Source: Macrocystis pyrifera
Lineage: Eukaryota; Sar; Phaeophyceae; Laminariales; Laminariaceae
Length of the DNA: 64,000 bases
NCBI GenBank assembly: GCA_031763025.1
Contig: JASSKH010000029.1
Span: forward strand, 7,033,263 to 7,097,262
Direction: 5' to 3'
A model generated the notes under the pieces. The model had not been told where the DNA came from. It did no database searches and saw nothing but the letters and a program-made list of their open reading frames with translations. This document shows positions 11,452 to 59,400 of the stretch, piece after piece. A program made the translations under genes and the position numbers. Within the stretch, counting starts at the first letter, position 1. Every line of letters begins with the position of its first letter.

Positions 11452-11724
11452 ATGGGCAAAAACGCCTACACCGCGACAACCACGGGGACCCCCCTCGAGC
11501 GCCTGGCGGGGACCATCGCGGCCACCCTCTTCAGCGCCTGCTACTTCTACGCGCTGCTGTGGCTGCCCGCCGTCGCCGGGCTCTTCTTCCTCGTGTCCAA
11601 GACGGCCGCGTGTATACTCTTGGTCCCCTACGTGGTGTCGGTGCTGCTTCCCGTGAAAGCCATCCCGAAGCTGCTCACCACGTGGTTCTTCAAGTGCGTG
11701 CTCAAGGTCCACGATTTTGAGCAG
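11452..11724 (+). CDS. DGAT2: DGAT2 exon 1
   Basis: 91 codons, phase 0 at the donor (GAGCAG|GTAAGG). It encodes the N-terminus with two membrane segments and ends FFKCVLKVHDFEQ. The 3' edge is repeated five more times in the following intron. Confidence 0.92.
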
Positions 11725-11779
11725 GTAAGGATGCGGTGGGGTTTGCACTATCTGGGCGCGTGTGTTTGGGAGGGGGGGG

Positions 11780-11810
<31 letters not shown>

Positions 11811-12526
11811 CGGAGAGATGGTTTTTTTTCAAGTGCGTGCTCATGCTCCATGATTTTGAGCTGGTGAGGAGAGCGGAAATGGTGGGTTTGGAGGATTTTG
11901 AAGCGTTTTTTTTTTTTTTTGGGGGGGGGAGGGGGATGTACTCATGTCTGTCATGCATGGCCGTAATCGTATGGCCGTAGACCATTGGGGGGGGAGGGGG
12001 TTGTTCGGGCGCATGCTCAAGCTCCACGAATTCGAGCAGGTGAGGAGGCATGAAAGGGTTTGTAAGACCTGGGTGCGTGTGGTGGGGATAGGGGGGGGAC
12101 TTCTTCAAGAGCGTGCTCAATCTCCACGATTTTCAGCAAGTGAAGAGGCAGGGATATGAGGAGTTTGTAAACATTGGAAGCTCCCGAGGGCATGGGAGGG
12201 GCGTGCTCACGCACCACTATTTTTGACCTGGTGAAGAGGCGGGAATATGATGGGCTTGTACTATTTTGAAGCACGTTTGGGGGGGGGGGGGGGGGGGCAG
12301 GGGACAAGTCCTGTAAGCGCGTTCTTAAGCTCCACGATTTTGAGCAGTGAGGAGGCGGGAATGGTGAGTTTTGTAGTATTGGAGGCGTTGAGGGGGGCTT
12401 GAGGGGGGGGGAGGGGAGGGAGGGAGGTTGTCGGCCAACATTTGTGGAAGAGTGGTGGGGAGGAAGGGGGAAGGGGGAAGAAGCCGGCACGATCAACCGA
12501 TATTCATGCGGATACACGGGGTTGGA

Positions 12527-12582
<56 letters not shown>

Positions 12583-15309
12583 AGGATGCGATCGCGCTTT
12601 TTGTTTTTTTGAATATTGTGTGGTAGTTTGGCGGGGTAAAATGGATAGGCGTCCCTACCTCTATGTCTAAAGTATGTCTATCTCTATCCCTCTCTTGATA
12701 TACTGTATATCTATATCTATTTAGATCCCTATGCCTGGCTTGTACGAAGTACACCGTCATGTCTTTCTCCGTATCTATTCGTGTCTCTGTCTCTACCTCT
12801 GTCTCTCTATCTGTGTCCGGCTCTATCTGCATCTCTCGCCGTCTCCCTCTCTATCCCAGTACCGCATTTCCGCCTTCAAGAGGACGATTGTTTCCCCTCG
12901 ATTCTGCCGTTACAGCGAAGTTACACCGCAACCCAGGTGGTGGAATCCCTTTTATTGTCTACTTGTACCAATACCAACCAGGTGGATATTAAGTAGTGTG
13001 TAAACCTCCCCTTCTCGTGTCTATACAGTACGTCAATCTACGTAGATATTTCTCTGTATATCTCAGCGTGCCGATATCCCGCTTCTCTGAGGGGTTGTTT
13101 TCCCTCGATTATACCGTTGCAACGCCCGTTTCAACGCCACGCAGGTGGCGTCGGATATCGTATCGAAAGTTTCGATAATGTATCGAAGTATCGAACTTCC
13201 GACATATCGAAGTATCGAAACTTTGGATCACACATCGAAGCATCGAACTTTCGTTATGTCGTATCGAAAAATTCTATAATGTATCGAAGTATCGAAGTTC
13301 CGATATATTGTATCGTATCGAAAGTTCCGATATATCGAAATATCGAATTTTCGATATATTGTATCGGACGTGCTTTGCCCCCATGTCCCCCGGCTTCCCC
13401 CCCCGTGTGTGTTATGCAAACATTTGAACGAAAGCTTCAAATCTACTGGTATCAAATATCGAGATGGTGTACTTGTATATCGTTTTTTTTGTTGTTTTTT
13501 ATGCAGATATTGAACGAAAGCCTCGAATATATCCAATATCGAGATCGTACATATCGGTTCGTTTTTTGGTTGTATCGGCATCGCGTCGAAGTCGACTCTC
13601 GTTCGATGCCGAACACGCCATGCAGGTAATGGAAACCTCTGAGGCAGAGCTGCTAGAGATCGAGAAGGGAATGAACTGATATTGAACCAAAGCTTCAAAA
13701 CTATGAGGCATCGAGATCGTACATATCGATTCGCTTTTTTTGTTATATCGGTATCATATCCAAGTCGACTCTCGTTCGATGCCGAACACGCCATGCAGGT
13801 AATGGAAACCTCGGAGGCAGAGGTGCTAGAGATCGAGAAGGATCGGAAGATAATCTACGCCGTACAGCCACACGGGGTAATGTCCATCGCCGGCATCTGC
13901 GCGGCCATCGATCTGGTGAGTTTTCATCGTCGTCAATGCTTTCACGCCTCGACCAGATCATCGATATCCACGCCATGATTTTTAGATATTTCAAGGCAGA
14001 TAGATTTTGCTCCATCTTTTTGTATGATCTACAGCAGTAGCATACGTTGTCGGGCGGGACCCGAAATATTCCGCGTGACCTAGCGCATATGCTTGCGGGG
14101 TTGGATATGTACTATGCAGATCCTGCGCAGCTCCTCACATCACAACGGCAGGTAAAGAACTAGATGATCTGTCTGTAGATAGATAGATCATTATCTGTCT
14201 GAGGGTAAGTTGGCGTGATTCGTGGTGTTGGGTGAAGTTCTTGTTGGTGTTGGTGTCGATGGTATTTTTTTTGTGGTAGTGGTGGTGGTGTTCGTCCTCG
14301 TGTTGCTGTCTGTGCTGGTGTTGTTGGTGCTGCTGGAGTTTGGTGGTGTTGGTGTTTCTGTAAGGTTGGTGTTGGCGGTGGTGGCGGCGGTTAGGGGCGG
14401 GGGGCGGGGGGGGGGTGGCGGGGAGGGGGTGGTGGTGGTCGTCGTGGTGTTGACGTCAGTGTTGGTGTTGTGTCGCTCTTGTGATTACTGGTGGATGTAC
14501 TGCTGTAGGTTGGTATTGGTGTTCGTTGTTGTCGTTGTGGCTGTCATGGTTGGTGACGATGGTTGATGGTGGTGGTGGTGGTTACAATGGTTGATGGAGG
14601 TGGTGGTGGTTACAATGGTTTATGGAGGTGGTGGTGGTGGTGGTGGTGGTTGCGACGGTGCTATAACCTATAGCACGTCGTTGTGGTCACCATCACCATC
14701 GGGGTTGGTACGGTCATAATGCGCCAACCCAACCATTTCGGGGGACCATAATAAATAGAACCTACGGTACACACAAGAACCTTCATCTTTCGCTATTTTT
14801 ATAACAATATTTTGGCCCCATTTGCTATGGCCTCCCCGTAACAGCAGCAGTAATTCGGACGGTAATCGCGCGACTCCGTTGCCGGGGTCGTTCCTTACGT
14901 TCTGACATGCCTTTTGGCAACCACTGCACCCCTTTTTTCGAGATGAAGCACTTGGGAATACGAGTTGGGATCGTTTCTGCGGGGCTAATGTTTACAGCGG
15001 GAGAGGGTGCAGGCAGAAGTAGTACTGTAGTATTACGGGGGTCCATAGTTAGTAGGACCTATGGTACACATAAAAACCTATATATTTACCTATTTTTACT
15101 AAAAAAAAAATGGTCCTATTTACTATCGTCCCCCTTACTGGTTCACACCTACGACGAAAAACGAAAACGAAGTTGAAAACGAGCACGAGATCGAAAGATT
15201 GGGAGAGTGAGCAACTGAAAACGAAATAGGAAAGGAGCGAGAAGGAGGAAAAGGAGAAAAGGAACAAGAAGAAGAGGTGACAAAGAGCAACAAAACGTAG
15301 CAAAACAAA

Positions 15310-15340
<31 letters not shown>

Positions 15341-17084
15341 CATAACTAAGCTACACTAAAACTGAACATCACAAAACGAAACAGGAACAAAAACAGGAAG
15401 CATGACTGAGAAAAAGAAAGAAAAGCCCCAACACCAGAACCAAAACCGAAACGATTTTTGATGACGAAAAACAAACAAGACACCGGTGAGCCTCCCGGCT
15501 ATAAACGTCTCAGTCCTCCTTTTTTCCGTTCCGACGAGATACACACATATATATTTATATATACATGTATATTCAGTATATATATTATAAATACTATGGC
15601 CAGTCTATTAACGACATGAAAAAAAACTTGCGGAAACACAAATTCGCAAAGAAAAAAAAAAAACTAAAAAAAGCGGCGCAGCAAAGCAACGAGAAGATCA
15701 AACCGAACGTTTTCAGTGTCTTAACCCCTTTCGAACACTCTACTCCCGTTTTGGTGAAAAAAAAAAAAAAAAAACTTGAAAATACACATGAGAGATTGGT
15801 TTGTTCGCAGTGCGGTTCCGAAAGGATCAAGCGTTGTTTTTTCAACATCTCTTGTTTTTTGTTTTTTGTTTTTGCTTTTTTGTTTTTTTATGCACTGCCT
15901 CGGGAGTCTTTTTTGAGTTTTTTTCCGTCTGGTCGTGAAACTCGAAAATCCGACGGAGCCGTTTTTCTTGTTCTATTCTCAACACTGGCAGCAGCCATTC
16001 CCAGGATTTTTTTGGGGGGGGAGGTTGGTTTAATACTTACCGCTCTGGCCGGAGAAATATGCAGCGTTCATACATTAATATGAATACCAATCGGTTCTTA
16101 TGTTTACGTCCAGAGATATATTTTTTCAGTGCACTCCTAGTGGAGGTGGGGGGGTTGTACTCATTATCATGCATGGCTGTAGTCGTCTGACCATAGACCC
16201 TCGCATCCCTACAATGCCGGGACGGAGCATGTCGGGTTTTCATCGATCAGGCAGACATTGCTTGCACCAAGCGCGAAGCGCCGTGAGGTGTCCGGCGAGT
16301 GGCATGAAGGGCGAGCTGCATCCTACTAAGAGCCGCTTGTGAGGCGTATTTTCTTGCGTATGGAGGACACCGTCAATGAATTGATTTAATTTCTGGTCTG
16401 GCCACTTGCAGAGACAGCAATGGGTTTACTATGTAACTGCCTCGTGGGTGCCTCACCATATACACACTACGTGATACGATCATCCCCCTTGTGCGGAGGG
16501 AAGGTTCTCCCGGCAAAAAAAAATGATCTAACTTGACCGCTAGCCATGGTGACCTCCAAAAAAAAAAAAAAAAAAAAAACGATACCCTGGCTGCCTCGCT
16601 CACCTAGTGAGAGGCGTGTTTTACAGCGTCGCCAGTCGACGCCAACCCAACCTATATATACCAGGTATATAATATAGGGGGGGGGGGGGTGCTTTTTTTT
16701 CGCAAAGAGAGAGACGCCATGTACTGTAGTTTTGTTTCAGACTTTCGACGACATATGCCTCTGTCTGTTTCACGATTTCCCGAATCGGCGCAAGTGTTTT
16801 TCGTTTTTTCACCGAAAAGTCGGGGCCGGTTTCGGTCATTCTTTTTTTTTGCAAAATAAACCGAAAAAAAAAAAAAAGAGGTCGTTTTTCGGTTTTCGGT
16901 CGGGGAAAACCCCCGAAGTAAACCGACCAAAAAAAAGGATGTTTTCGGTTTTCGGTTCACAACGCTGACATCGGCACTTTATTCACGATACAGACTACGA
17001 GTATTAATACAGCAAAAAAAAAAACAGATTACACACGAAAACGGGGTGGACCACAACGAAAACAAAGTCAAGAAAAAAAAAAAA

Positions 17085-17117
<33 letters not shown>

Positions 17118-20100
17118 GCAGCACGGCTCACGAATTTCCGAAACTGGGTGTTTTCTTCAGGATCAGAGAGGCGTCCTGCGATAGACGTTTCACCCTAGAC
17201 GCGTTCTACGTACGATAGACGTGGCGCATTTCCGCTAGAATGGTTTCTGGATGACGGGCTTCCTTAACCCAAAATCGTCGGAATGCAAGATCTTGTTTCG
17301 AAAAATGACGAAATTGGATGCTTGGGCCACGGGTTTAATTCATCGAGTTGCGAATTAGATTTTCGCTGATGAAGTCAGTTTTTCGGGCGAGGTATGGAGC
17401 TCCTTAAGGTCAGGCGAGGAGCCTCAGAAAAATTAGGGTGAACCTCCTCTATCGTAGGACGCTTCTGCTATGCCCCAAGGTGGAATCGGAAAAAAACACT
17501 TAGAGATGTGCGGGGGATTGAGGGAAGGAATAGGAATGAAAACGTATTTGCATGGCCCAATGGACTTCGCGAAAACGCTGAAACTGCGCTTTCGTGTAGG
17601 GGACCTGGACCTGCCAGAAAGAAGAAAAGAGGTACACCAGTAGCCGGGAAGAGGAGGGAGTAGACGCACAGATGTGCCCGTGTGGCAAAGCAATAGAGAG
17701 TAGAACTCACATAGTAGGAGAATGTGGAATATACAAGGAGGAACGGGATGTGTTAAAGGAGGAGATGAGGAAAATAGACGAATGTGACATGGGGGAGTTT
17801 GATACAATGAACAGCAGCGAGGAAAAAACGATCGCTACCCTAGGAGATAGATGGTGGCCACAGGAGGCCAAACAGGAAGGGGATAAGATTAGCAAAAAGT
17901 TTCTATGTAATTTATGGAAACAACGTAATGAGCGCCCAATTGTTGGAGGTGTCTCTATTAGGAGTAGGAACGGTGCTCCGTCTCGAAAGGGATGCGCGGT
18001 CGATGGTCAAATGACTAAGGCGAGCAACAACAAATGAGTACGCCCCCCCCCCCCCTCTACACCCTGCTAATAATGCGAAGTTCAACGGGGGGCAAACATG
18101 CCAGGTATGAATTACCACAGATGCAACTCGCAACTCGACGTCTACGTACGCGTTGTGCCCAACAAGGAAGAGCACAGGTTTCATGCTCATCCTTACTTCC
18201 TTCAACTGCCGCCCGACTAGGACACCGTCGTGGTTCAGATTGTTCTTTACCCCAGATGTGATACCTCTACTATCGTAGAACGCCTCCAAACAATAACAAA
18301 CAGGTGTGGTGGGGGGGGGGGGGGGGGGGGGTGTACTCGATAGGAGAGATGTACTCGATCTCATGCATGGCCGTAGTCGTATGACCATAGACCCTCGCAT
18401 CCCTACAATGCCGGGACGGAGCACGTCGGGTTTTCACCGACCAGGCAGACATTGCTTGCACCAAGCTTAGCGAAGCGAAACGTGAGGTGTCCGACCGGTC
18501 GCATGAAGGGTGAGTGAGCTGCATCCTACTAAGAACCGCTTGTGAGGCGGACTTGCATATGGATGACAGCCTCAATGAGTTAGTTTAATTTCCGGTGTAG
18601 CCACTTCCAGAGACAGCAATGGGAGTACTATGTAACTGCCTCTAGGGTGTGCCTTGCCTTGAACACTACGTGATACGATCAATGCCCTTGTGCAGAGTAA
18701 AGGTTCTTTACTTCGCACAAATGATCTAACTCGGCAACCAGTTGTGGGCGACCGCCAAAAAAAAATCAAAAAAAAAACAGTACCCTGGATGTCTAGCTCA
18801 CGTAGTGAGCGGCATGTTTTACAGTGTCGTTGCCAACCGGCGCCAACCCAACCGGGGGATGTAAGGTCCTTTTCTACAGGGGGAGGGGATGTAAGGTCCG
18901 TTTATACACTGATCTAAAGACCAAGCGGTGCTTCTATGTTTACGGCCTGAGTGTTTTTGAGTTCTGAACAAAGCGACAAGATGAATACCCGGTTGTGTCT
19001 TTTACATCGTAAATCTGTCCGTTCGTTCGTTCGGTGGAACTTGTTTTGTTTGCTCTCTCTTTTTGGTTGAAACGTTTTTCGATCGGTCATATATGACAGC
19101 GTTTGATCGAGTCCCTCGGCCGAACTATTACGCTTTCACCGCAAATATGCAGAATCGAATGCGGTGAATAGAAACTGTTACGAGCTTACGATATATTGTA
19201 GCAGATTAATACCAGGCAAGTGTAATACTGCAACAGCAGTAGTACCATTGATTCATACCACATGTTATTACGGGGGGCCATAGTTAACAGGACCTACGGT
19301 ACACATAAAAACCTATATATTTACCTATTTTTACCGACATTATTTGGTCCCATTAACTATGATCCCCCGTAATAGTGATGGACGCGAAACGTTCGATACG
19401 AGGTACCAAAGCGTGCCGGTAAACGAAATGGCGAGGCGATTGTTCAAATAGTCCACGCGTCGAAGACTCTTCATTCAAAGTCCGCGTGAACTACCGGGTA
19501 GGCTCGGATTGAGGGGCAGCGCCTAATTTTTTTTTTTTTTTTTTTGTATGTAACCCCGCAGCTGAAAGAGCCGAATAGGCACTTCCCGACCCTATACCCT
19601 GACCCCGACCCTATTCCGGGGGACCGTAGTAAATAGGACCAATATTGTTCGTAAAAATAGGGAAATGTATAGGATTTTGTATGTACCGTAGGTCCTATTT
19701 ACTATGGTCCCCCGTATTTGGAACCCTTTTAGAGCTGCAGTCCCGTTTAGGGGGAAAAAAAAAAACTTGGAATTAGTGTGGTTCGTCCCCAAAACAGGAC
19801 TGCAGTACTAAAAAGGTTAATATGGAAGAGTGGTGGACCGTCCCGGGATGGATTCACGGGTGGGCGCTTGCCGTGCCGAGACAGGAGGGGTACGTGTAGA
19901 CAAGGAGTATACAACATAAGAGTGTATGCTGGAGCACCTCACGGGAACGTCTCATATGCCCCCCGAAGAAACATGCCTGCCGTCTCTATATATCCCAGAC
20001 TCTTGTTACATTTTATGTATATATCTATTTTTCCATCCATTTTATTATGCCTGCCCCTTCTTTTCTATCTCCTTCCTATTTTCGGGGGGCCATAGTAAAT

Positions 20101-23100
20101 GGGACCAAATATTGTCTGTAAAAGTGGGAAAATTTATAGGTTTTTGTGTGTGCCATAGGCCCTATTTACTATGGTCCCCCGCAATAGTCGTGACTCAGAT
20201 CAGGGGGTCACAAAGCAGGCTAAACTTCCTCCTCGCCCTCGACGGTTCCTTGGCTTGCGTTTCTGTCGCGAAAATATTTCAGCCCCTTTCTTCTCTCGTC
20301 GACTCAGACAACCATCTCAGACAACCGTCTCTTAACAGTCAACAACATTACACTACCCGTGTCCCTGCATCGCTACTCCTGACCGTTCTATTACGGAGGT
20401 CCGTAGTAAACAGGACCAAATATTGTTGGTAAAAATAGGTAAATATATAGTTTTTTGTCTGTACCGTAGGTCCTGTTAACTATGGTCCCCCGTAATAGTA
20501 CCGCAGTCCGGTTTCGGGGACAAACCAGTCAAATTCTGAGTCAGTGTGTCGCCCAAACGGGACCGCGGCACGAAAAGGGGTAGGTGACCCACAACGAGTT
20601 GGACGCAGCTCGCCCTTCACGCGACTCGCCGAACACCTCACGTTCCGCCCCGCGCTTGGTGCGAGCAATGTCGGTCTGGGCGGTGAAAACCCGACGCGTT
20701 CCGTCGGGGCGTTGTCGTGGGGCATGCGAACGGTTCTCATGGTCGTACTGTTTACGGGGGGCCGCAGTAAATAGGACCGAATATTGGCGGTAAAAAATGG
20801 GGAAATATGTAGGTTTTTGTGTGTACCGTAGGTCCTGTTTTCTGTGGTCCCCCCGGTAAATACTACTACGGACCAGCATAAGAATGAGTACAACGCCCCC
20901 CGTAACCCAAAGCCCCCAATCACGCTTGTAGCACAACGCCTGTAGATAGCTGCAGCGGGCATCTCTCTTCAGCTTGGTCTCGCAAGAGCTCGAGGTCATC
21001 ACAGCGTAGACAGGACCGTGAGCGTGACTATGAGTATGACACAGAAGCAAGTACCCTTGGCGGGTGTCCGGGGGCGGGGGGTGGGGGGTCAGGGTTGTAG
21101 AGGTGCAGTAGTGTGTCTGAGCGTTCCGCGTGTAACATACGCTGAATCTTCATCTCTTTTCGGCTGTAACGCGTTACTACAGTAATGGATTTGTGCGACC
21201 GACCGGCCGACCGACCGACCGACCTGCGCGTGGCGAGTGTAGGCGCGCGCTCCCCCCCGGGATGCTGTACAGGAGATGAAAGAGCTAAACGCGTTCGAGA
21301 CGATGTGTACTATATTTTGCGACGTACCGGTATATTGTTCTCCCCATTTTTTTTTTCTTCTAGTGTACATACAATACCATGGTTACATGCTCTCCTTGTA
21401 TTGTTGTTTCTGCGGAGCGAGTTCGTAGGTTCGAGTCTCATTCGAGCGCGTGTTCGTGGAGGGGCTTTTCCTTGCATAAAAATCGATGAGCAGAAAGAGC
21501 GAAAGCGTGAGTCAGCAACATTCGATGAAAATCGACGAGCGGTGGGAGTGCTGAACCCTGCGCGCGAATTAAAAAGGAAGGCACGTGCCGGGGGGGGGGG
21601 GCGGAGAAACGTACCACTTTTTTTTAGTCAGAAACGCTGCTACTGCGTGTAGAAACCTAAAAATCTTACTATAGTTCCAAGTGAAGTGCCCCTGCAACGG
21701 AAGTGCAGTCCAACAAGGGTTAACTTTGGGGGCCTTTCTCGTCGGAGAGCTTTTTTCCCCCAGAATTTCCAAATTTTGGAAAATGTTTGGATATTTGTAT
21801 CTAGGTACGGAGGCGTTCTGTCACAATAAGTGAAATTCTTCAGAATGCAAAAGTATCAGGGAAGTTAAGCTTCGCCTGGAAAAAAAAAAAGGAAAATCTG
21901 GAAGATTGAAAAATTGCGCGAAAAAAAACGAAGTTATGGGAAAAAAAAGCTCTCCGAAAACCCAAAGGCTTTTTTAGTGCTGCACGTATACGTGTACCTA
22001 CATGTGACCCTAGATCGAAGTGATTTGTTCCCGCAAGGGAGGGGACAGTCCTCAAATGGACCTTTCGCACGAAAATCTTAAGAAGCCAGTGTATTCTGAA
22101 GATATTTATGTTGGACGTGCGCTGCCCCCCGTGATATTTTTTTTTCAATCCTGGCTCGACCTGACCGGTTCTTAAGTGGTGCCGTTACTGGTTTGGCCAA
22201 CCGGTTGAAAAAACCCACAACGAAACTCAGGATTTCACATGTCACATGAAAGCCGGGGCATCCAAGGTACAACACCCCCTACTCAGCAGATTGTGATTGG
22301 TTGAGCGTCGAAGCAAACCCTCTACTAACGCTAACTGCGGGCGGGGACTGCCGTGGGTAAGGTAGTCTCACGGCGGTTCCCAAACTGACTCCTAGTAATC
22401 GCAGAGACAACGACAACGTGCAGAGACATTGACACGGCCACATTTCCGTTTTGATAATGGTGACTCTCATGAAGTATCTACTTGAGCTAATGATGGTGTT
22501 AACTTGTTGTTTTGTTGATATTTTCGGAGACGGTAGTGTTATATACCCCCCTTGTCCCTTCGCCTACTATTCCGGGGGGGCCATAGTAAATATAGGACCA
22601 AGTATTGTTGGTAAAAATAGGGAATATATATAGGGTTTTGTGTGTACCATAGGTCCTGTTTACCATGGTCCCCCGTGATGGTAAGTAGTACCAACAACAG
22701 CACCCAAAAAAAGTCACATCGTGTCCACCTCCAACATCAACAGCAACATCGTCACCGACAAGAACGCCATCAACAAAAGCAACAACACCAACACCACCAA
22801 CACCACCGTCACCACCAGCACCGCCTCCAACGACATCACCAACACCAACGTCCACTACACCAACACGGCGGAGGCAGACGGTGGCCACATTCCGCCAAAC
22901 AAGAAGGGGGTTAAGACAAGCGAAAACGTTCTGTGTACGGTACACATATGGAAACAACGCAATCGGCGCCCAAGTGGTGGAGGCGTCTCTATCAGGGATG
23001 TAGGAACGTTGCTCCGTCTCGAAAGGGATGCGTGGTCAATGGCCAAATGAATGACTCAAGGCAAGCAAGAAATAAAAACGCCTCCCCTCCTATGGCCATA

Positions 23101-25062
23101 CGGCTACGGCCATGCATGATGATGAGTACGCCGCGCGCCTCCCCCCTCCCCCGCCCTCCCGAACCCCAAACTATCGCGGCCTATCACAGGCCCCGCGACC
23201 AATCCCTCCGACTTGCGCGGCAAGCGTGATCCAGCGGATTCCTATTTTGAAGCACGTGTTCGGCATCTTCGGCCTGGTGGGCGCTTCGAGCTACAGTATA
23301 ACCAAGGCCCTCAAGAAGTCGAGCATCGTGCTGTACGTGGGTGGGATAGCGGTGAGAGGCCCCAACCCTTTGTCTGTTTGTCAGACATCGAATTAAGATG
23401 CTCAAGTACGATCAGCATTACAGTACTAAGAGCAGAACTGGGAATGTACCCTCTGGAGACAAATAGAGACGTGAGAGAGTTGAAATGGAAATATATAGTA
23501 GGCAACATGCCAAAAAAAGAAGTTGCCAGTCGTAGCTGACAGAGCTGTACGGGAGAAAGTGACAAAAGGGCGAGCTGGAATAAGGTGGGATAACGTAGTT
23601 GAGAAAAGTATGGAAGGATATAGGAGGAAACCAAGAAGAGATTATGTTCGCAGAGAAGTTCGGGGATACAAGGCACAAGTAGAAGAAAGGATAGAAAGAA
23701 GGGAGAGGCTAGCGCTAAGAAACAAGGTGGAAACGGAAAAACACTTGAGAGATATACGGGGGATTGAGCGAAGGAATAGGAATGAAAACGTATTTGCACG
23801 GCCCAATGGACTTCGCGAAAACGCTGAAAACTGCGATTTCGTAGGGGACCTGGACCTGCCAGAAAGAAGAAAAGAGGTACCTGGTATACCAGTAGCCGGG
23901 AAGAGGAGGAAGTAGATGCGCAGATGTGCCCGTGTGGCGAAGCAATAGAGAGTAGAACTTACACAGTAGGAGAATGTGAAATATGCAAGGAGGAACGGGA
24001 TGTGTTAAAAGAGGAAATGAGGGAAGTAGACGAATGTGACATGGAGGAGTTTGATGCGCTAGAAAGCGACGAGAAAGCGATCGCTATCCTAGGAGATAGA
24101 TGTTGGCCACAGGCGGTGAAACAGGAAGGGGATAATGTTAGCGAAAATCTGTGTAGTATATGGAAACAACGCCCAAATAAGGTGTCTATATTTGGAGTAG
24201 GAACGGTGCTCCGTCTCGGAAGGGATGAGTGGCCAATGGTTGGTCAAATGACTAAGTAAGGCAAGCAACAAACGAGTACGCCCTCCCCCCCCACTGGAAG
24301 CGGCCACACCAGAAAATAATTCATTTCATTGATGGTGTCATCCAGATGCAAGGAAGTCCGCCTCTCAAGCGGTTCTTAGTAGGATGCGGCTCACCCTTCA
24401 TGCGGCTCGCCCCAACACCTCACGGCGCTTCGCGCTTTGGTGCAAGCAATGTCTGCCTGGTCGGTGAAAACCGGACATGCTCCGTCCCGGCATTGTAGGG
24501 ATGCGAGGGCCTATGGCCATACGACTACGGCCTTGCATGAGATCGAGTACATCTCTCCTATCGAGTACACTACACTCCCCCCCCCCCCCCCCCCCCTCAT
24601 GTCCAGGCTGGTGAGCCGAAAAAAAAACGCCTGACAACACCAATTATCGTCGTATTAATACAAATACCTGGTTTACGGTGGTAGGAGCTGTTTCTATCTA
24701 CGCCTGCCGAGGAGAGACTGTTCGTGGGGAAGAGGAAGGGCTTCATCAAGCTGGCCATGCGCACGGGGAGCGAGGTGATCCCCTGCTACTACTTCGGCAA
24801 CACCACGGTTTTGGAGGTGAGATAGGTGGCGTGCTGGGACAGAAGGGGGGAGGGGGGGGGGGAGCTCTTCTGCTATTTCGGCAATGCCACCCTTTTAGAG
24901 GCGAGATAGGTGGCGTGCGGCGGCAGAAGGGGGGGAGGGGGGGGGGGAGCTCTTCTGCTATTTCAGCAATGCCACGGCTTTAAGGGCGGAAGAGATGGCG
25001 TGTGATATTCGAGAAGAAGGGAAAGGGTGCTACTACTGCGGTGATACCTCGGATTTGGAGGG

Positions 25063-25108
<46 letters not shown>

Positions 25109-25933
25109 CTCTGCTACTCTATTTTTTGCGCTTTGACAACAAACACAACGGTTTTTGTTTTGTAGGTGAAATGGATGAAGAGTGATATTTGAGGAGGGGA
25201 GGTGGGGGGAGGGTCTGCTACTACTCCGAGCACACCACGGTTTTGAATACGAGATGGGTGGCGTGCATGATTTGGCGGGATTCGTGGAGCCGGGACGGGA
25301 GAATTTTCCTGAGAGGAGCATGCAGGTTTCCTAAGAATGATGCCCTATGGTCTCTACTGCTGTAGGTATCTTCTTTCGGCGACAGGCCGGGGAGGGGAGG
25401 GGGGTGGGGGTTGTACTTGATATCATGCATGGCCGTAGTCCGGGAGGGGGGGGGAGGGGGTATAGTATGGATGTGGAACTGTCTACCTGTGGGGGTAGGG
25501 GGGAAGGGGTCGTGCTCCGCTATTTCGCTGGTGTGTGCTTTTGCCTGCTGCAGTGGGTGCCACATAACTGTGCGCGGTTCTTTCTTGTATAAAGACACGT
25601 TACTTGTTCATTTTGTATTTTTCCGTTCTTGTTTTCGGGCTGAAGTGCGCTCCAAAACCGAACCTGCTTGCTGAAGGTCACTCTAAAAACCCGAACCTGC
25701 TTGGTGGAAGTTCGTACCGTAAACCGAACCAACCTCCTTTGGTACGGTACAGCACAAATCGCTGTATAGGGTTCTAGCAAGAACGGCTTGGGGGTTGATT
25801 TTTTTTTTTGTCGGAGCCATGAAACGTGCCGATTATTCACGCGGCTGTATGCGCCACTCCAATGTGTAGATTCCCGACGTCGCGACCCCCCCCCCCCCCC
25901 CCCCCACCCCTCCCCATTCTACTCCCCCCTACT

Positions 25934-25965
<32 letters not shown>

Positions 25966-27197
25966 CTCCACAACCCACCTCCTCCTTCACTCCTCCCACG
26001 CCCCCCTCCCCCCCTCTACCCCTTCGACGCCCTCTTTTTTGTTGTTTGTTTGATTTCGATTTTTTTCGTCTGGCGCCCACAGATCATCCGGCACCCGATG
26101 CTGACGAACATCAGCCGCAAGCTCGGCGTCAGCATTACTATCCTTTGGGGGCGATGGGGTTTGCCGGTCCCCATGCCCTGCAAGGTGAATCATTATTCGG
26201 CTCGCCTCCCCCCCCCCCCCCCCAATTCATTGAGTTGGATCGTTTTTGTGCGGGGAGAGCCTTCACTCCGCACGAGGGGGATGATCGTATCAAGTTTTGT
26301 GTTCATGGTAAGGCACCCACGAGGCAGTTACATGGTGTAGACCCGTTGCTGTTTCTGGGAGTGGCCACGTCAGAAATTAAAATCAATTCATTGACGCCGT
26401 CATCCACATGCAAGAAAATCTGCCTCACAAGCAGCTCTTGGTAGGACGCAGCTCACTCCTCGTGCGACTCGCCCAACACCTCACGGCGCTTCGCAAAGAT
26501 TGGTGCAAGCAATGCCTGCCTCATCGGTGGAAACCCGGCGTGCTCCGTCGCGACATTGTAGGGGTGCGAGGGTCTATGGTCATACGACTACGTCCATGCA
26601 TGATATCGAGTACACCCCCCCCCCCCTCCCCCGCGCTTGGTGCAAGCAATGTCTGCCTGCTCGGTGAAAAGCCGACGTGCTCCGCCCCGGCAGTGTCGGG
26701 ATGCGAGGGTCTACGGTCATACGACTACGGCCATGCATGATATCGCGTACAGCCTCCCCCCCTTCGACTTTGGCCATGCATAACATGAGAACCCCCCCCT
26801 TCATTGATGCTGTCATATATATGCAAGAAAATCTGCCTCACAAGCGGTTCTTAGTACGATGCAGCTCACCCTTCGTGCGACTCGCCGGACACCTCACGGC
26901 GCTCCGCGCTTGGTGCAAGCAAAGTCTGCGTGGTCGGTGAATGCCCGACGTGCTCCGTCCCGGCATTGTAGGGATGCGCGGGTCTACGGTCATACGACTA
27001 CGTCCATGCATGATATCGAGTACACCCCGCCCCTCCCCCGCAGTTGGTGCAAGCAAAGTCTGCCTGGTCGGTGAAAAGCCGACGTGCTCCGTCCCGGCAG
27101 TGTAGGGATGCAAGGGTCTACGGTCATACGACTACGGCCATGCATGATATCGAGTACACCCTCCCCCCCCTTCGACTACGGCCATGCATGACATGAG

Positions 27198-27266
<69 letters not shown>

Positions 27267-31843: not shown

Positions 31844-32056
31844 ATGGCCGATGCGAAGGACCATAGCGACACGGGAGAAGCCGCTGAGCTCGACCGGCTC
31901 TTGGCGTGGTTCGAATCGCACGGAGGCCGCATCTCAAAGCTATGCCTCGAAGACCTTGGAGGCGACATGAGTCTGAGCGTGGTGACACAAGAGGCAGTGC
32001 TCAAGGGAGACGTGGTCATGTCCATCCCTACCTCCTTGTGCATGACGGTCGAGTCT
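31844..32056 (+). CDS. SET gene exon 1
   Basis: 71 codons, donor GAGTCT|GTGAGT. Starts MADAKDHSDTGEAAELDRLL and ends with GDVVMSIPTSLCMTVES, the usual beginning of the SET fold. Confidence 0.85.
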
Positions 32057-43990: not shown

Positions 43991-44050
<60 letters not shown>

Positions 44051-44424: not shown

Positions 44425-44454
44425 TGGGCTCTATCGTGTTTTTCTGTGGGTCGG

Positions 44455-44595
44455 TAGGTTGGTCGGTCTGTCTGTGGGTCTGTTGGTTCGGTCGGTATGA
44501 CTGTTGGTTTGGTCGGTCTGTCTGTGGGTCTGTTGGTTCGGTCGGTATGTCTGTTGGTTTAGTCGGTATGTTTGTGGGTCTGTTGGTTTTGGTGA
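44455..44595 (+). repeat. minisatellite, GGTCGGTCTGTCTGTGGGTC-type
   Basis: Units of about 56 bp, two and a half copies, just downstream of the SET stop codon (probable 3' UTR). Confidence 0.7.
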
Positions 44596-44599
44596 GCCG

Positions 44600-45546: not shown

Positions 45547-45655
45547 TATTACGGGGGACCATAGTTGATAGGACCTACGGTACACACAAACACCCATATA
45601 TTTCCATATTTTTACTAACAAAATTTGGTCCTATTTACTATGGCCCCCCGTAACA
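45547..45655 (+). mobile_element. MITE-A copy
   Basis: TATTACGGGGGACCATAG left end and GGCCCCCCGTAAC right end. Confidence 0.85.
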
Positions 45656-51179: not shown

Positions 51180-51293
51180 GATCTGTTAACGCCCTCTTCG
51201 TGCCCGCCTCTGCCATCGCAGTCATCGCTGGCTTCGTCGCCCGTACGGTGGCTTCCTTCTGCTGAGAGGCAGTCATAGCCCCTCCTTGGGAGA

Positions 51294-51358
<65 letters not shown>

Positions 51359-51383
51359 AGCACGGGCTGAACTGCAGAGGGCG

Positions 51384-51444
<61 letters not shown>

Positions 51445-51504: not shown

Positions 51505-53401
51505 CTGGGAGGAGGTGGCGGGATTCTTACAGATTCGAAATCACGAGTGGGGGTGGGCGTTGGGGGTAGGAGTTAGGGGTAGGGCAGGGGTTAGGAGTTA
51601 GGGGATAGGGGTAGGGTAGGGGTTAGCGGTAGAGTAGGGTAAGGCGTTAGGGGTGTATGGCTGAGGCGCAGGCTAGGGGTTAGGGGTAGGCTAGGGGTTA
51701 CCCCTCGGACGATTTTCGAAGCTTGGTTTCTCGAGAACGGGGAGGGCGTACCAAGTACGACGAGCGACCAAATATTTCCAAAAAAGCCACCCACCATTTT
51801 CGTCGTGTGTGCCCCCCCCATCTTCTGGAGGAAACCGGGTGTCTGAAAAATAGTCCCCGGGGGTGTGCTATTTTATCACCCTAGGGTGATAGTGTTATAC
51901 GGGAGTAGGCTAAGGGTTAGGGGTGGGGTAGGGGCTCGAGGTAAGGGTAGGGGTAAGGATTAGGGGTAGGGTAGGGATTAGGGGTAGGGTAGGGATTGGG
52001 GGGAGGCTAGGTGTTAAGGGTAGGCTAGGGGATAAGGGTAGACTAGGGGCTAGGGGTAGACTAGGGATCGGGGGTAGGGATTAGGGAGGGGGTTAGGGGT
52101 AGGGCATGGATTAGGGGTAGGGCATGGATTAGGGGTAGGGGTAGCGGTTAGGAATAGGGTTAGGGTCAGGAGTGGCGTTTAGGGGTATGGGTGGATGGGG
52201 GCGGGGGTGGGGAGGGTACTCATTATTTGCTTGCCCTATGTCATTTGACCAACCATTGACAACGCGTTCCTCTCGAGACGGAGCACCCGTTCCTAACTCC
52301 TTCTCACCGAAAGATTTATGCCAGCTTCCGAATCGAAGTTGAGGAAACCTTCCCCGGTGACCATGTTGATCACCGGTTGCGGCCCAGACCCCCCTGCCCC
52401 TCCTGCCGAAAAGCGGTCCTGCTGGAAAACCCGGTTTTGAAAAAAAAAAAAAAGCGGCAACGGTTGCGGTTAGTTGTCGAATTTTCGTAATGGTCGTACT
52501 TCGTTCTTGCCAGTGGCGTTAAGACAACCCTTTGGGTACCGCAGTTTACAGAAACCCATCTATAACTCTAATTCCACGTAATTTCTCACAGAAAAGGGAG
52601 TGCAGGGGGGTTAAAACAACCATTTTGGGAGCGGGTTTTGTTTACACCAAAAAACTTATACCAGGTACCAGGCACCAGACATAAGCTTTTGACTTAGGTG
52701 GTCGCTATATATACGACTAAATAGCTCAAGCAGGCTGTGGCTTTCAGCGCCACCATCAGCTGACCGCGAGCGACGACGACGCAGCACGACTGGCCCGCAG
52801 CAGGCGGGCTTTTCAGCGTCAGCATCTTTCAGGTGACGCACGCACGGCACCACGAAGCTGCGGTACCGCACACTGAATATATACTCGCACGGTACTTATG
52901 TTTGCGGCACCATCGTCGTCTTTTTCCAAGGGAAACGATCAAAGGAAGATACACCCCCCTGGGTTTTCGACTTTTTGGGTGTACCACTCTGACCCGAAAT
53001 ATAGGGACCGTTATCATACAAGTATTCATCACAAAACGATCCTTATATTTTGGGTCAGAGTGGTATAAGCTAAACACGCCAGCGGCGGCCGAAAAAAACC
53101 CCCCCAGCAAAGCAAAAGGGCGCGCGTGCTCGGCATGGGCTGCGGGCGTCCTGCCAGCGCGTCGGAGTTGCATCTGAGGCAGGTTGGGGCACGTGGGAGC
53201 GGGCGTGTTTTTCCTATATCCCCCAAAAAGGGCCGAAAAAAACAGGGAGTCATACCCCCCTTTGGCCATTTCCCTTTTTTTTTCCCAACGAATCTCTTCG
53301 TACGCGCACTTTTTAGCAAAAGCGCCGAGGGGGTTGACATGGGGAAGGCCATCCGGGACACGGTTGTCGACGTTTGGGGGCGATCAGAAACATGAGTGCC
53401 A

Positions 53402-53434
<33 letters not shown>

Positions 53435-56400
53435 CCGATCCCCCCGGTACTTGCAAGTCTCTGGAAGAGATTACACCAGAAATTAAATCAATTCATTGAC
53501 GCTGTCATCCACACGCAAGAAAATCCGCCTCTAAAGCGGTTCTTAGTAAGATGCAGCTTACCCTCTTACGCGATTCGCTCAACACTTCACGGCGCTTTGC
53601 GCTTGGTGCAAGCAATGTCTGCCTGGCCGGTGAAAACTCGACGTGCTCCGTCCCGGCATTGTAGGGATGCGAGGGTCTATGGTCACACAACTACGGCCAT
53701 GCATGATAATGAGTACACCCCCCCCTCCCAACATCCCCCCTGTACTTGCAAGTCTAGATCGGCGGTCGTAGAATCGAATCGGTTTCCGCCTCTGCTCGAA
53801 GGGGGTACATCAGTACCTTTTTCACTATAGGTGTAAATCAGAAACTCCCAAAAGTAACAATCTGAGCCGGCTTCACTCAAGCTCGAAAGGGGTACACAGC
53901 AGTACCTGTAGTTTAAAATGCCTCCTTCTGCACGGAAATGATAGGAACCGTTTCACACCTCTGCTGAATCATCTACAGATAGATCATGATCTAGATCTAC
54001 CAGGACAGAAAGATGCTTTCCTGATCTGTACGATCTAGCTCATGATTGCCCCGTGGGAGCCGTAAAATCTACATGATCTAGGTCATTCGTATTTACCGGG
54101 TTGGATCTGTACAGTATAGACCCTGCACAACCACATAGCAGCAGCTTAGGATCTATAGATGAACTATCTGTAGATAGATAGATCGCGACTTGTCCGACGT
54201 GCGGACCGTTCGGGCTTCATAACCATACCCCAACGAAAAGGGTTTATACAGAGAGCAGGCGTGGGCGGCGTATTCTGTCATACCTGCTGCGCCACCGCAC
54301 TGGCGTCCACCCCCTCGCTCAAGTCTCTGTTGATCGCCTTACAGATGGGGTTGGAGCACAAGAAGGAATTGCCGTGGGAGTGGAGGCGGTCTACTGGGGG
54401 AAACGGTGTCGCATCCTGTCCAAGCGGGAAAAGGGGGCAACGAGAATGAGGGTCGGTTGCCGTGTTTAGCCTAGGAGCGCGTCAAAAAGCACACACGCAC
54501 GACTAACACAAAAACGCAGCAAAAACAGAAAAACAAAACAGCACAAAAAACATTTAAAAAAAAAACACTACACGACTAACAAAAAAACGCAGCAAAAACC
54601 CAAAAACATAAAAGCACATTTTTTTTTTTTGCAAAAACCCTGAACACAAAAAAAAAAAAAACTAAAAAAACACCAAACAAAAAACACACACACAAAACCC
54701 GATAAAAATAAAACAAAAATCATGACACGCGTTTTGCGCAAGAAGCGGGAACTGAAGCCAGGCCCACCGAACGGGAGCTGGAGCCAATCTGAACCCGACA
54801 ACGAAAACGTACAGCTTGTTCTTAACGACACAAAAAAACACCGTGTAGGCAGCAGCAGTATCGATGCCTATACCATAACCAGTATCAGCAACGATACCAC
54901 AACCTAAACACCACCACGAGCGCGAAACGAAAAAGAAATACCTGGCACGCGTTTTCGGCAAAAAGACAGCCACGCAGACGTACAACAACGTTTTCGGCGC
55001 ACCATACACGCACAGTTCTATTTTTTGGTGTTTGATTTGTTTTTGAACATCACATTTACGGTTAAATACATACAAGCGTCCCCGGTGGCTTGGTAGGTGG
55101 TCCGCGTGCCTATCAAGATCAATTTCGTGGGTTCGAGTCTCACCGAGTGCATACGTACTCATCAGGACTTTTTCTTGCTATTAAAAAATATATTAGCGGA
55201 AACCGCGAGAGAGCGTGCGTAAAAAAGCAACGTTCGATTAAAATCGACGAGCGGTGGGAATGATGCTGAATGAACCCGATCATATGCGCGATAAGAATGA
55301 AGGCACGTACGTAGCGGGGGGAGAAGGAAGAGACTACACCTGTGCCATGACCACGGATTGTCCAGAAGAAGACCGCTGAGGGGAAAACCTCCTACCTGGT
55401 ACGAGTTAAGCTGGAAAGTGAACGTGACTATTGAAAAAACAAGAAAAAAAAAAAAAACGGTACCTATTACAAGGGACCAAATATTGTCATTTCGGGGGTC
55501 CATAGTTAACAGGACCTATGGTGTACATAAAAACCTATATATTTCCCTATTTTTACTAACAAAATTTGGTCCCGTTAACTATGGACCCCCGTAATAGTAA
55601 AAATAGATAAATATATACCTGGTAGGTTTTTGTGTTTTACCGCAGGTCCTATTTACTACGGTCCCCCGTATCAGTACTCGTACACACTTAAAGTGCACCT
55701 CAGCCCGCCTCAGCTATGAATGGTATCGATAACATATTCGAGCCTCTTTTGAGCAAGTTGCGTACGAATGACACTTTCCATCGCGCGTGCTCTACGTAAA
55801 CCGTGTGAAAGGATTTTACCGTGTACCCGGTAGGCGTTTATGGGAAAATTCCCATTCGTTGGTACCTGGAAGTGTCCCCTGCCCCACACGGCGAAGTGCT
55901 GTCCCCCCTTTTCCGGCTCGAGGAGGCGGTTATAAATGCCTCGCATGGTTTCGTACTCCTTGAAACAGCCGTGCTCCAGGAAAATCACCTTGCACGAAAA
56001 TAAATAAAAAAATATAGTCGGTTAAAATTCATTGGAGATTGTATGTGGACAATATCTAATGTGGTATTGTTTTTGGTAGAGAAAAGATGGCCTTTGTAAA
56101 ATGAATCAGCATCGTGGTCTAGCTCCCTGTAGAAAGCGCCTATAGGAGAGAGAACCGTTGTGCTGTGCAGCGAGACGACCGCACGTGGGAGCGGAGCAGC
56201 AGACTGCATGAGCACAAGGCACTCCCGCGACTGTCAGGCTATTACGGGGGGCCATAGTAAATAGGACCAAATAATGCTAGTAAAAATATGAAAACATATG
56301 GGCGTTTGTGTGCACCGTAGGTCCTATTAACTATGGTCCCCCGCAATTTTAGAGCTAGCCCCCGTTGTCGATGATGTTTTCATGCCTTCTGGGCCGGCGG

Positions 56401-59400
56401 CTTGCGCGAGGAACGTGGATGCGGTTGTCTCACGACGAAAAAATATGTACGTACCTGGTATGCGGTTAAAATGCGTACCTTGTACCAGACAGCAGAAAAA
56501 AAAAAAAAAAAATCGAGAAACACAAAAAAATTACAAAAAACCCCCTACTAAATAAGGAAAAAAAAAGCGCCTTGAAAAAAAAGACAAGGACAAAACAAAT
56601 GCTAGAGGAGGCGGTTTCAATTGCCTCGCACGGTTTCGTACTCCTTGCACTACCGGTGCGAAAGGAAATTCACCCTCGAAAAAAACCAAAAAAAAAAACG
56701 AAAACGAAAACGAAAACGAAAATATTCCTGCATGGTCTCGTACTCCCTTGAACCAACCACCCGTGCTCGGTGCTCGAGAACCAAACCGAAAATGTTTCGG
56801 AGAACACGGAAAAAAATAAAACAATAAATCGGAAGTACCTGGGTACAAAAACAGGCCAAACACGCGTCTCACTGAAGTAGGAGAAATCAATAACCACTAC
56901 GAGTAAACAGGCGCATATATACCAAGCATACGAGTAGTATTACGGGGGTCCATAGTTAATAGGACCTTTGGTGTACATAAAAACCTATATATTTACCTAT
57001 TTTTACTAACAACGTTTGGTCCTATTTACTATGGACCCCCGTAATGATAATTTGGTTCAACACACAGCCCACGTGCTCGATACATCTACTATATACAGCA
57101 GTAGTGCACTTGCATACTGGTAATGTATTATAATACCAGTTTGCGGAAAAACAGCAACAACAACAACAACAAACAAAAATGTCGCTTTTCAGCTTTTTCG
57201 CCAAGACAAGAAACGCTGAAACAGCGTCTGGGTGAAAACAATACCCGGCAGAGGCTTGGGACGGGCGTGGCCGGGCTGGCAAAACACAAACAATAGGGAT
57301 ATCATATATTGGTGCAGTGCGGCACTATCTCTACCAGAGGCATTTTATACCTGGCACCTGGTATACGTTCTAAACCACTGCCTAGCCGTGTGCTACGGTG
57401 TGGGTTGCAAACAAGGGTTGCAAGTAGGGGCTGCAATTAGGGGATACAACTATTAAGGGCCGTAGTAAATAGGACCAAATATTGTTAGTAAAACTACCGA
57501 AATATGTAGTTTTTTGTGTGTACCTTAGGTCCTATTTAATATGGTCCCCCGTAATAGGGGTTGCAACTAGGGGCTGCAATTAGTAGTTGCAACTAGGGAT
57601 TGCAACTAGGGGATACAACTACTGCGGATCATAGTAAATAGGACCAAATATTGTTAGTAAAAATAGCGAAATATATAGGTTTTTGTGCGTACCGTAGGTC
57701 CTATTTACTATGGTCCCCCGTAATAAGGGTTGCAACTAGGGGTTTCAATTGGGGGTTGCAACTAGGGGCTGCAATTAGAGGTTCCAATTAGTGGTTGCTA
57801 TTAGGGGTTGCATTTACTGTAGGGGCTGCACTTTAGAGTCCAAACACTTCTTACCGGCGGAACTCCTCCACTGACGAGCTCCACTCGTTTCGACTAGTTT
57901 TCCTGTTGTTTCTTCCGATTTTTCTCTCTTTTCAACGCATGCTATTACGGGGGACCATATTAAATAGGACCTACGGTACACACAAAAACCTAAATATTCC
58001 CCTATTTATACCAACAACATTCGGTCCTATTTACTATGGCCCCCCGTAACAGAACGCGTGCTGTAACTCGTCTTTGCAATCTGCGTGCGGCATACATGTC
58101 GTGCCCATCATATTCACTACCGTGGCATGGCATTGCACTGTCTACTCTGCTTGCTGCATAACAAACGTACGGCAACTAGTATTGTATCTCCGTATCCTAG
58201 TTTGGTGACCACACAGCCCGTGTCTCTCGCCAGGGTTAAGCATCAGCACCGACACTGGGTGCGCCGGATGCGCGAGGGGCACATAGAACAAAACGGTTAC
58301 ACGTGAAGAACACACACGCACCCCAAAGTCTCGTTGGACCCGATAACTACACACGTTTCGACAAATACCTCGCGCCCACTTACCCTGGGCACTAGGGAAG
58401 CGATACCGGAGAGGGCACCATTCCAGGCGTGTGCCGGACCATAGCGGGGCACACCCCTCTCTCGTTACGGACCTCGGTTGCTTCCAAGGTCCGTCCGTCT
58501 TCCGTCTCGAAGGTCTTGACGTTCACCGTCTTAACGTAGTACTCTACAACGTAGATAGCCCATGGGATGTTGTGCGTATCAAGCCTCAAAGCATATCATA
58601 CATCGTTTTATCTCAAAAGTACATTGTTGGCAGACATGCAAGAGCATAACAATAACGCACGGCTGTTCATGGGTCGGGTCAAACCTCGCGGGTCAGGTCA
58701 GTTCAGGTCGGGTCGGGTCGGGTAAAAACGGTGACCTGACCCGATCCGTCAGAACTTGAAAATCGCCTCACCCGACTCGACTCGACCCGACCCACGACCC
58801 GACCCCCGAACCGACACGGCCCGTGAGTGTTCCTGACCCGACCCGATCCGGCCCGACCCGACCCGACCCGACCCGACCCGACACGTGGGATTCCGAAACG
58901 TTCCTGACCCGACCCATGAAGAGACTTGAATAAGAACTAGGTGCGACGAACCCACACGGTAGTACCGGGTAGGTGTTTGCCGTACAACACACCAACACAG
59001 GACTCACCAGCACGCAGTGGGACAAATGCCAGCACATGACCTGCCTCAAGAGCCCCGGGTTGTCGGTCAGCAGGCCCACCACCGGCTCCAACACCTGGAA
59101 CCACATCGCGACAGCAGCTCCGACGGTCAAACGACTACTAGGTAACTATTACGGGGGACCATGGTAAATAGGACCTGCGGTACACACGAAAACCTATATA
59201 TTTACCTCTTCTTACTGACAATATTTGGTCCTATTAACTATGGCCCCCCGTAATATTAACGGATAAACGTCTCATAAAGGATCTGCGTATAGATCGGACA
59301 GATCGCATAGGTCGCAAATCCCCACTTCATGATGACTCAATGATCTACACATCGCATAGATCATCGATTCCCATTTCATGACGACCCTATGACCTGCACG

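What the first reader, a model, noticed from the sequence alone, without database searches (positions are those of the whole stretch)
11452..56793. General pattern: 'splice-edge echo arrays' in all three genes
Five of about 24 exons carry tandem copies of one splice edge (three donor-side, two acceptor-side), in three unrelated genes. Units include exon sequence plus splice site plus some intron, and many are bounded by poly(G)/poly(C). Whole-exon tandem duplication is well known; serial duplication restricted to an exon edge, repeated gene after gene, is not something I know as a described system. Possible mechanism (inference): strand slippage or break repair at G-quadruplex-prone runs beside exons, with selection or gene conversion keeping some units protein-like.
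Basis: inference. Interest (0 to 1): 0.9.

Follow-up and report, generated by a model that had tools for sequence, protein, structure and literature searches.

The report
Decaying copies of splice-site edges
In three neighbouring genes of a brown alga, five exon edges have been copied into the adjacent intron, most likely by ordinary tandem duplication that splicing hides from the protein; single cases are known elsewhere, but finding several in one place is unusual.

Summary
The pattern is real. With 21 exons and 18 introns modelled in three genes (a DGAT2-like acyltransferase, a Rubisco-LSMT-domain protein, a conserved unknown), exactly 5 of 36 exon edges have copies in their own intron: three donor, two acceptor. 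Scores are 46-84 against at most 31 for the other 31 edges. The DNA is brown algal. The 14 echoes are 64-84% identical to the live edge and look mostly like decaying non-coding copies: in two arrays changes fall evenly over codon positions, one echo has three stops in 24 codons, and 7 of 11 echo donors keep GT. One array (gene 2) has a weak synonymous excess that I cannot explain away. Best explanation: tandem duplications spanning a splice edge, for donors mostly bordered by G/C runs, partly amplified like a minisatellite and tolerated because the splice site next to the exon body still gives the right mRNA. Precedents exist (human IFI6, potato RdRp, fission yeast), so this is a variant of a known kind. 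Edge arrays are over-represented here (5 of 7-11 intronic arrays, 0.8-1.4 expected; P 0.006-0.06 after allowing for slow exon decay), but the sample is tiny and chosen after the fact; the genome-wide test could not be run.

The parts
11452..29223 (+). Gene 1, DGAT2-like diacylglycerol acyltransferase, 7 exons (11452-11724, 13799-13915, 23190-23351, 24685-24816, 26083-26184, 27289-27359, 29124-29223)
   Evidence: 80% identity to P0001, labelled Undpi1; P0001 has Pfam DAGAT; exon joins, stop codon end checked
11686..11724 (+). Live donor edge of gene 1 exon 1 (exonic part that is echoed); intron starts GTAAGG at 11725
11825..12388 (+). Donor array, gene 1 intron 1: 5 echoes at 11825-11912, 11999-12088, 12101-12149, 12201-12279, 12308-12388; GT kept in 5 of 5
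13518..13668 (+). Acceptor array, gene 1 intron 1: one full echo of the exon 2 acceptor edge (live copy 13690-13841); a further partial copy of the intronic part at 13432-13485
24867..25266 (+). Donor array, gene 1 intron 4: 4 echoes at 24867-24934, 24937-25022, 25028-25093, 25196-25266 (live edge from 24783, donor at 24817); GT lost in 4 of 4
31844..44424 (+). Gene 2, Rubisco-LSMT-domain protein, 10 exons (31844-32056, 32980-33045, 33765-33832, 35342-35465, 38550-38627, 39349-39477, 41404-41594, 42628-42788, 43541-43617, 43852-44424)
   Evidence: 80% identity to P0121, labelled Undpi1; PF09273 on P0121
36246..36566 (+). Donor array, gene 2 intron 4: 2 echoes at 36246-36389 and 36404-36566 (live edge from 35403, donor at 35466); GT kept in 2 of 2; C runs at unit borders; B-type dispersed repeats lie between live edge and echoes
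52308..59094 (-). Gene 3, conserved protein of unknown function, 4 exons found (59094-59008, 55988-55866, 54415-54284, 52421-52308), incomplete
   Evidence: partial homologues P0139-P0143; no Pfam hit for the joined exons
56601..56768 (-). Acceptor array, gene 3: 2 echoes of the exon b acceptor edge at 56685-56601 and 56768-56724 (live copy 56003-55916)

Best explanation
These are old tandem duplications whose duplicated segment spanned a splice edge. One breakpoint lay 34-73 nt inside the exon (as aligned) and the other inside the intron, for donor edges usually at a G/C run. In at least two arrays the founder copy was then amplified like a minisatellite; all copies decayed. Such duplications are tolerated because the splice site next to the exon body still gives the correct mRNA; the other copies become intron. 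Shown: the units, their similar exonic border, the border runs at donors, changes shared by the echoes of an array but absent from the live edge, and near-neutral decay in most arrays. Inferred: slippage or microhomology-driven repair at the runs, use of the splice site next to the exon body in vivo, and no current function.
For: Echoes of an array start at similar exonic positions: 4 of 5 within 3 nt in gene 1 intron 1, both at the same base in gene 2; in gene 1 intron 4 two at 24783-24784 and two reaching 24765 through a G run. In gene 1 intron 1 all five echoes have C where the live exon has G (valine codon; leucine in four of the echoes) and GTG where the live donor has GTA; both gene 2 echoes share a leucine-to-valine change. 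Echoes carry residues of Undaria that the live exon lacks: L in the gene 1 exon 2 echo, A in both gene 2 echoes (parallel change not excluded). Changes by codon position 9/10/12 and 11/11/10; 3 stops in 24 codons in a gene 3 echo. GT kept in 7 of 11 echo donors; AG at the aligned place in 1 of 3 echo acceptors, one base off in another. G/C run within 20 nt at 9 of 11 donor junctions, background 15%. Tandem copies abut a G/C-run cluster in 6 of 86 cases, 1 of 111 A/T-run clusters, 16 of 1793 random points, P 0.0003. Sequence outside genes has a similar amount of local tandem repetition: 42 of 589 usable tiles against 45 of 701 in introns.
Against: Edge arrays exceed expectation: 5 of 7-9 intronic arrays against 0.8-1.2 expected (P 0.0003-0.0026), or 1.5-2.1 if edge arrays stay detectable twice as long (P 0.006-0.03). 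Gene 2 echoes have a synonymous excess (11 of 19 changes, 5.8 expected, P 0.009). All arrays pooled: 33 synonymous of 103 changes, 20.2 expected, no simulation of 5000 as high; without gene 2 it is 19 of 80 against 14.3 (my subtraction). Live-to-echo pS 0.31, pN 0.17, though live-exon changes also raise pS. In gene 1 intron 1 exonic parts of echoes are a little more alike than intronic parts (mean 0.70 against 0.63). Without the three donor arrays G/C runs are only weakly enriched at unit borders (3 of 75 against 16 of 1732, P 0.04 at 20 nt; P 0.12 at 50 nt), and a looser test found nothing (7 of 75 against 66 of 548). Acceptor arrays lack G/C runs. No transcript data.
Confidence: 0.77

Rival explanations
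1. A process aimed at splice edges (for example repair at stalled, transcribed exon-intron borders beside G/C runs) makes edge duplications far more often than other intronic duplications, and is a main route of intron growth in this alga.
For: 5 of 7-11 intronic arrays sit on edges where 0.8-1.4 are expected; donor arrays are tied to G/C runs.
Against: One window, three genes, tested after the pattern had been seen; P is 0.006-0.06 when the live exon's slower decay is allowed for; acceptor arrays have no G/C runs.
Confidence: 0.15
2. Some echoes are or were used: alternative donors, acceptors or small exons giving protein variants, as with the human IFI6 minisatellite.
For: Gene 2 echo 2 is open over 21 codons and the two gene 2 echoes differ mainly at third codon positions (4/3/12); GT is kept in 7 of 7 echo donors of two arrays.
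Against: Gene 2 exonic parts are no better conserved than intronic parts (0.67 against 0.69 between echoes); gene 2 echo 1 has a 1-nt deletion; GT is lost in 4 of 4 in gene 1 intron 4; relatives' proteins show no matching insertion at the gene 1 and 2 joins concerned, beyond one extra residue in P0004 at the exon 4/5 join. Gene 3 relatives were too partial to tell.
Confidence: 0.1
3. The echoes mark introns that were themselves created by tandem duplication of an AGGT-bearing exon segment.
For: A relative of unnamed source (P0141) reads gene 3 exons a and b without a break, so that intron may be absent there. The start of that intron matches the next exon's start at 7 of 12 positions, 95% of unrelated pairs having 6 or fewer; gene 2 intron 4 start beats 17 of 17 other introns; gene 1 intron 4 end is beaten by 1 of 17.
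Against: No echoed intron shows the signature at both ends. Units contain intron sequence, so the intron came before the echoes. P0141 may come from a partly spliced transcript.
Confidence: 0.05
4. Assembly or chance artefact.
For: Homopolymer-rich sequence is hard to assemble.
Against: Copies are 64-84% identical to the live edge with different indels and far above shuffled and cross-intron controls.
Confidence: 0.01

Closest known systems
[quoted passage not shown] 1995, NAR 23:1854; title in the reference list and one citing passage of PMC4526556 seen; the paper itself is not held)
   Same: Repeat units downstream of an exon carry splice donors.
   Different: By the passage, two downstream IFI6 units are used as donors. 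Here units are long and diverged, and no use is shown. That IFI6 units are short is recalled.
Potato RdRp gene: tandem duplication across an intron-exon boundary, with a new intron (PMC4974935; passages seen)
   Same: The duplicated segment holds the 3' part of an intron plus the 5' part of the next exon, as in the two acceptor arrays here.
   Different: One duplication in one gene, and it gave a new intron; here there are up to two full acceptor copies, apparently silent.
Fission yeast SPOG_01682 and SOCG_00815: multiple tandem duplication of a 24-bp AGGT-bearing exonic segment, introns across four and two duplicates (Zhu & Niu 2013, as described in PMC4974935; passage seen)
   Same: Serial tandem copies of exon sequence that end up inside an intron.
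   Different: The unit is wholly exonic and made the intron; here units contain pre-existing intron and a splice site.
[quoted passage not shown] cited in PMC3443670 and PMC4974935, passages seen; paper not held); tandem-duplication introns in Drosophila (PMC2891723; passages seen)
   Same: Same mutational class: tandem duplication inside genes.
   Different: The passages seen discuss intron birth, not serial arrays at existing edges.
LRR exon shuffling in brown algal ROCO genes (PMC11378527; passages seen)
   Same: Brown algae, repeated exon structures inside genes.
   Different: Whole 72-bp coding exons, with alternative splicing reported.

Membership tests
Intronic tandem repeat array (minisatellite-like) | Repeated copies of one unit in a common register | tested here: met
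   Three donor arrays with 2-5 echoes and one acceptor array with 2; the other acceptor array has one full echo plus a partial one. Local-only tile scan also lists all five
Minisatellite providing multiple splice donors (IFI6 type) | Repeat units keep donor sites | tested here: inconclusive
   GT in 7 of 11 echo donors: 5/5, 0/4, 2/2
Minisatellite providing multiple splice donors (IFI6 type) | Downstream donors used in mRNA | not testable with these tools
   No transcript data available
Intron gain by tandem duplication (AGGT model) | Intron start copies the next exon's start and intron end copies the previous exon's end | tested here: not met
   none of the four echoed introns stands out at both ends. 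Single-end signals: gene 2 intron 4 start rank 0 of 17, gene 1 intron 4 end rank 1 of 17, gene 3 intron 1 start 7 of 12 anchored matches
Whole-exon tandem duplication / mutually exclusive exons | Copies span the whole exon with both splice sites | tested here: not met
   Echoes hold 34-73 nt, as aligned, of exons 117-273 nt long, with one splice site

The most novel reading that the evidence does not exclude
Splice edges are true hotspots: in this brown algal lineage a recurrent process, anchored for donors at G/C runs beside exons, keeps duplicating exon edges into introns, so that a sizeable share of introns grow from their edges and carry datable fossils of past exon sequence; some gene 2 copies may have coded for a time.
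Probability: 0.15. Interest if true: 0.65.

Novelty: new variant of a known kind. Interest (0 to 1): 0.42.

Why it matters
If the rate seen here (5 of 36 edges) holds genome-wide, edge-spanning duplication would be a sizeable route of intron growth that I found no measurement of in my ten literature searches. The echoes would also be useful fossils: because each is a silent snapshot of an exon, they can root changes in the live exon (two cases here agree with Undaria) and measure decay against the coding copy. If it does not hold, the case still illustrates that splicing can shield edge duplications from selection.

Tried and rejected
Genome-wide test: the own-genome search did not complete at every try (calls listed below), so the frequency outside this window is unknown. 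A scan of viral contigs for gene 2 relatives and one of bacterial/archaeal genomes for gene 1 relatives gave no algal DNA. Rfam at gathering threshold and ARAGORN found nothing in the window.

Rejected: chance; whole-exon duplication; AGGT-type intron gain as the general cause; protein-level maintenance in two arrays. A candidate gene 3 exon near 55397-55340 was dropped because similar sequence recurs near 59640 (read by eye). A Q-rich last exon near 51512-51163 was not counted for lack of homology. A 36-nt match at 25142-25177, at the reporting threshold, was not counted as an echo. One search was discarded (masked letters matched each other). One search ended with a script error after saving results; 7 of 1598 tiles had no value and were dropped. 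One search lists 23 clusters, 8 of which make up the five edge arrays; one other (44401-44600) crosses the end of the last gene 2 exon, which is not a splice edge. A tandem pair at 12844-12911 / 13051-13124 fell into the same cluster as the gene 1 acceptor array and was first not counted apart; one search repeats the array test with it, and with the simple GGTTT array, counted. Unit lengths and junction positions used were read by eye from alignments. Rows left out: one search omitted gene 1 intron 1 echo 4, gene 2 echo 1 and gene 3 echo 2; one search omitted gene 3 echo 2; one search covers three donor arrays only.

Literature: ten searches (listings only, plus passages of five papers) showed no description of serial splice-edge arrays at existing introns; the library is open-licence papers only.

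Full report
Organism and genes. The window is brown algal nuclear DNA. Gene 1 encodes a DGAT2-like acyltransferase; its best match is P0001, labelled Undpi1, which I take to be Undaria pinnatifida (80% identity; DAGAT domain in P0001). Gene 2's best match is P0121, also Undpi1 (80%), with a Rubisco-LSMT substrate-binding domain. Their labels carry consecutive numbers on one scaffold (4334 and 4333). Undaria is in Laminariales; the species of the window is not identified. Gene 3, on the minus strand, matches only partial sequences from an unnamed source and no Pfam family. Exon borders come from these alignments and from reading splice sites: 21 exons and 18 introns totalling 34,047 nt. Gene 3 is incomplete.

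Anatomy. Gene 1 exon 1 donor: five echoes between 11825 and 12388, each with up to the last 39-41 nt of the exon, a donor and some intron. Gene 1 exon 2 acceptor: one echo of about 150 nt (126/152 identical) plus a partial one. Gene 1 exon 4 donor: four echoes. Gene 2 exon 4 donor: two echoes of about 150 nt, separated from the live edge by dispersed repeats. Gene 3 exon b acceptor: two echoes. That is 11 donor and 3 acceptor echoes, 64-84% identical to the live edge as aligned. Exonic borders within donor arrays are similar: 4 of 5 within 3 nt in gene 1 intron 1, both the same in gene 2, two plus two in gene 1 intron 4. In gene 1 intron 1 all five echoes share changes absent from the live edge, and so do the two gene 2 echoes, pointing to one founder each.

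Are the echoes coding or functional? Mostly not, as far as sequence tells. In two arrays echo changes fall 9/10/12 and 11/11/10 over codon positions. A gene 3 echo has three stops in 24 codons. GT is kept in 5/5, 0/4 and 2/2 echo donors; AG is at the aligned place in 1 of 3 echo acceptors and one base upstream in another. The exception is gene 2 intron 4: 11 of 19 changes on the two echo branches are synonymous where 5.8 are expected with base composition held fixed (P 0.009; third-position test P 0.03). A less careful count gave 14 of 23 against 5.9, and 33 of 103 against 20.2 over all arrays with none of 5000 simulations as high; by array the others give 7 of 32 against 5.1, 9 of 32 against 7.2, 2 of 14 against 1.7 and 1 of 2 against 0.25. 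Live-to-echo divergence is pS 0.31 and pN 0.17, which neutral echoes beside a constrained exon would also tend to give. Against a coding reading, the exonic parts of the gene 2 echoes are no more alike than their intronic parts (0.67 against 0.69) and one has a 1-nt deletion; in gene 1 intron 1 the exonic parts are slightly more alike (mean 0.70 against 0.63). I leave gene 2 as an open, weak signal.

Fossils. In two arrays echoes carry the residue that Undaria has while the live exon differs: leucine in the gene 1 exon 2 echo, alanine in both gene 2 echoes. The simplest reading is that these echoes predate changes in the live exon and have not been overwritten by it at those sites; parallel change is possible.

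Border runs. Nine of 11 donor echo junctions lie within 20 nt of a G or C run of six or more, against 15.3% of intronic positions (units in one array are not independent). None of 3 acceptor junctions does. Over the window, local tandem copies abut G/C-run clusters within 20 nt in 6 of 86 cases, A/T-run clusters in 1 of 111 and random points in 16 of 1793 (P 0.0003, G/C against random). Without the donor arrays it is 3 of 75 against 16 of 1732 (P 0.04), and with a 50-nt limit P 0.12. A looser test found no difference (7 of 75 against 66 of 548). A dispersed repeat (26 matches) often ends in a C run, and some of its 3' parts are themselves tandemly copied with a G/C run at the border (26614, 29744, 41657), which suggests the same process away from exons.

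Are edges special? Local tandem repetition covers 45 of 701 usable intronic tiles and 42 of 589 usable tiles outside genes, so introns are not richer overall. But 5 of 7-9 intronic arrays sit on edges where simulation expects 0.8-1.2 (P 0.0003-0.0026). The live exon decays slowly, so an edge array should stay recognisable about twice as long (inference); allowing for that, 1.5-2.1 are expected (P 0.006-0.03). The test followed the sighting, rests on three genes, and used unit lengths read by eye. It is a hint, not a result.

Mechanism. A tandem duplication inside an exon changes the protein; one that spans a splice edge need not, because the splice site next to the exon body survives and everything beyond it is intron. 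This would explain why both donor and acceptor edges are seen and why the copies decay. Slippage or repair between a homopolymer run in the intron and a short match in the exon is the likely trigger for donor arrays; this step is inferred.

Compared with what is known. A minisatellite supplying multiple splice donors is on record for human IFI6 (citation and passage), a boundary-crossing tandem duplication for potato RdRp and serial 24-bp exonic duplications within fission yeast introns (passages), and intron gain from tandem duplication generally (passages). What is new here is five long-unit edge arrays, some serial, in three neighbouring genes, three of them in gene 1. Frequency elsewhere in the genome, use in RNA and conservation in relatives remain untested, because the genome search did not complete and no transcript or relative's DNA was within reach.

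Noticed in passing
whole window, e.g. 57612-57725, 45547-45653: A dispersed element of about 110 bp with inverted-repeat ends (TTACGGGGG.CCATAGT...), 41 BLAST matches in 64 kb including partial and palindromic ones: a MITE-like family at high density.
   Followed up: partly
e.g. 34755-34956, 36024-36225, 26419-27167: A second dispersed repeat (26 matches) whose 3' end often runs into a poly(C) tract, with some 3' parts tandemly copied; may be the source of some of the G/C runs in the window.
   Followed up: partly
59008 to 55988 (minus strand): Homologue P0141 from an unnamed source reads gene 3 exons a and b without a break, so the 3-kb intron carrying the acceptor echoes may be absent there (or the contig may be a partly spliced transcript).
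   Followed up: no
12844-12911 and 13051-13124: A further tandem pair inside gene 1 intron 1, upstream of the acceptor array; by eye both copies hold CAG|GTGG-like sites, but kinship with the exon 2 edge was not tested.
   Followed up: partly
44401-44600: A tandem repeat crosses the end of the last gene 2 exon just after the stop codon.
   Followed up: no
51564-51700 and 51905-52165: Two blocks of degenerate TAGGG-type, telomere-like repeats near the 3' part of gene 3.
   Followed up: no
42860-43307: About 89 copies of a GGTTT pentamer inside gene 2 intron 8.
   Followed up: no
43999-44070 and 51295-51441: Long CAG/CTG trinucleotide tracts, the first coding for glutamine in the last gene 2 exon.
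   Followed up: no
41594-41600 and 42788-42798: Gene 2 exon 7 appears to end with a GC donor (CAG|GCAAGG) and exon 8 with an unusual GTTGGT donor.
   Followed up: no
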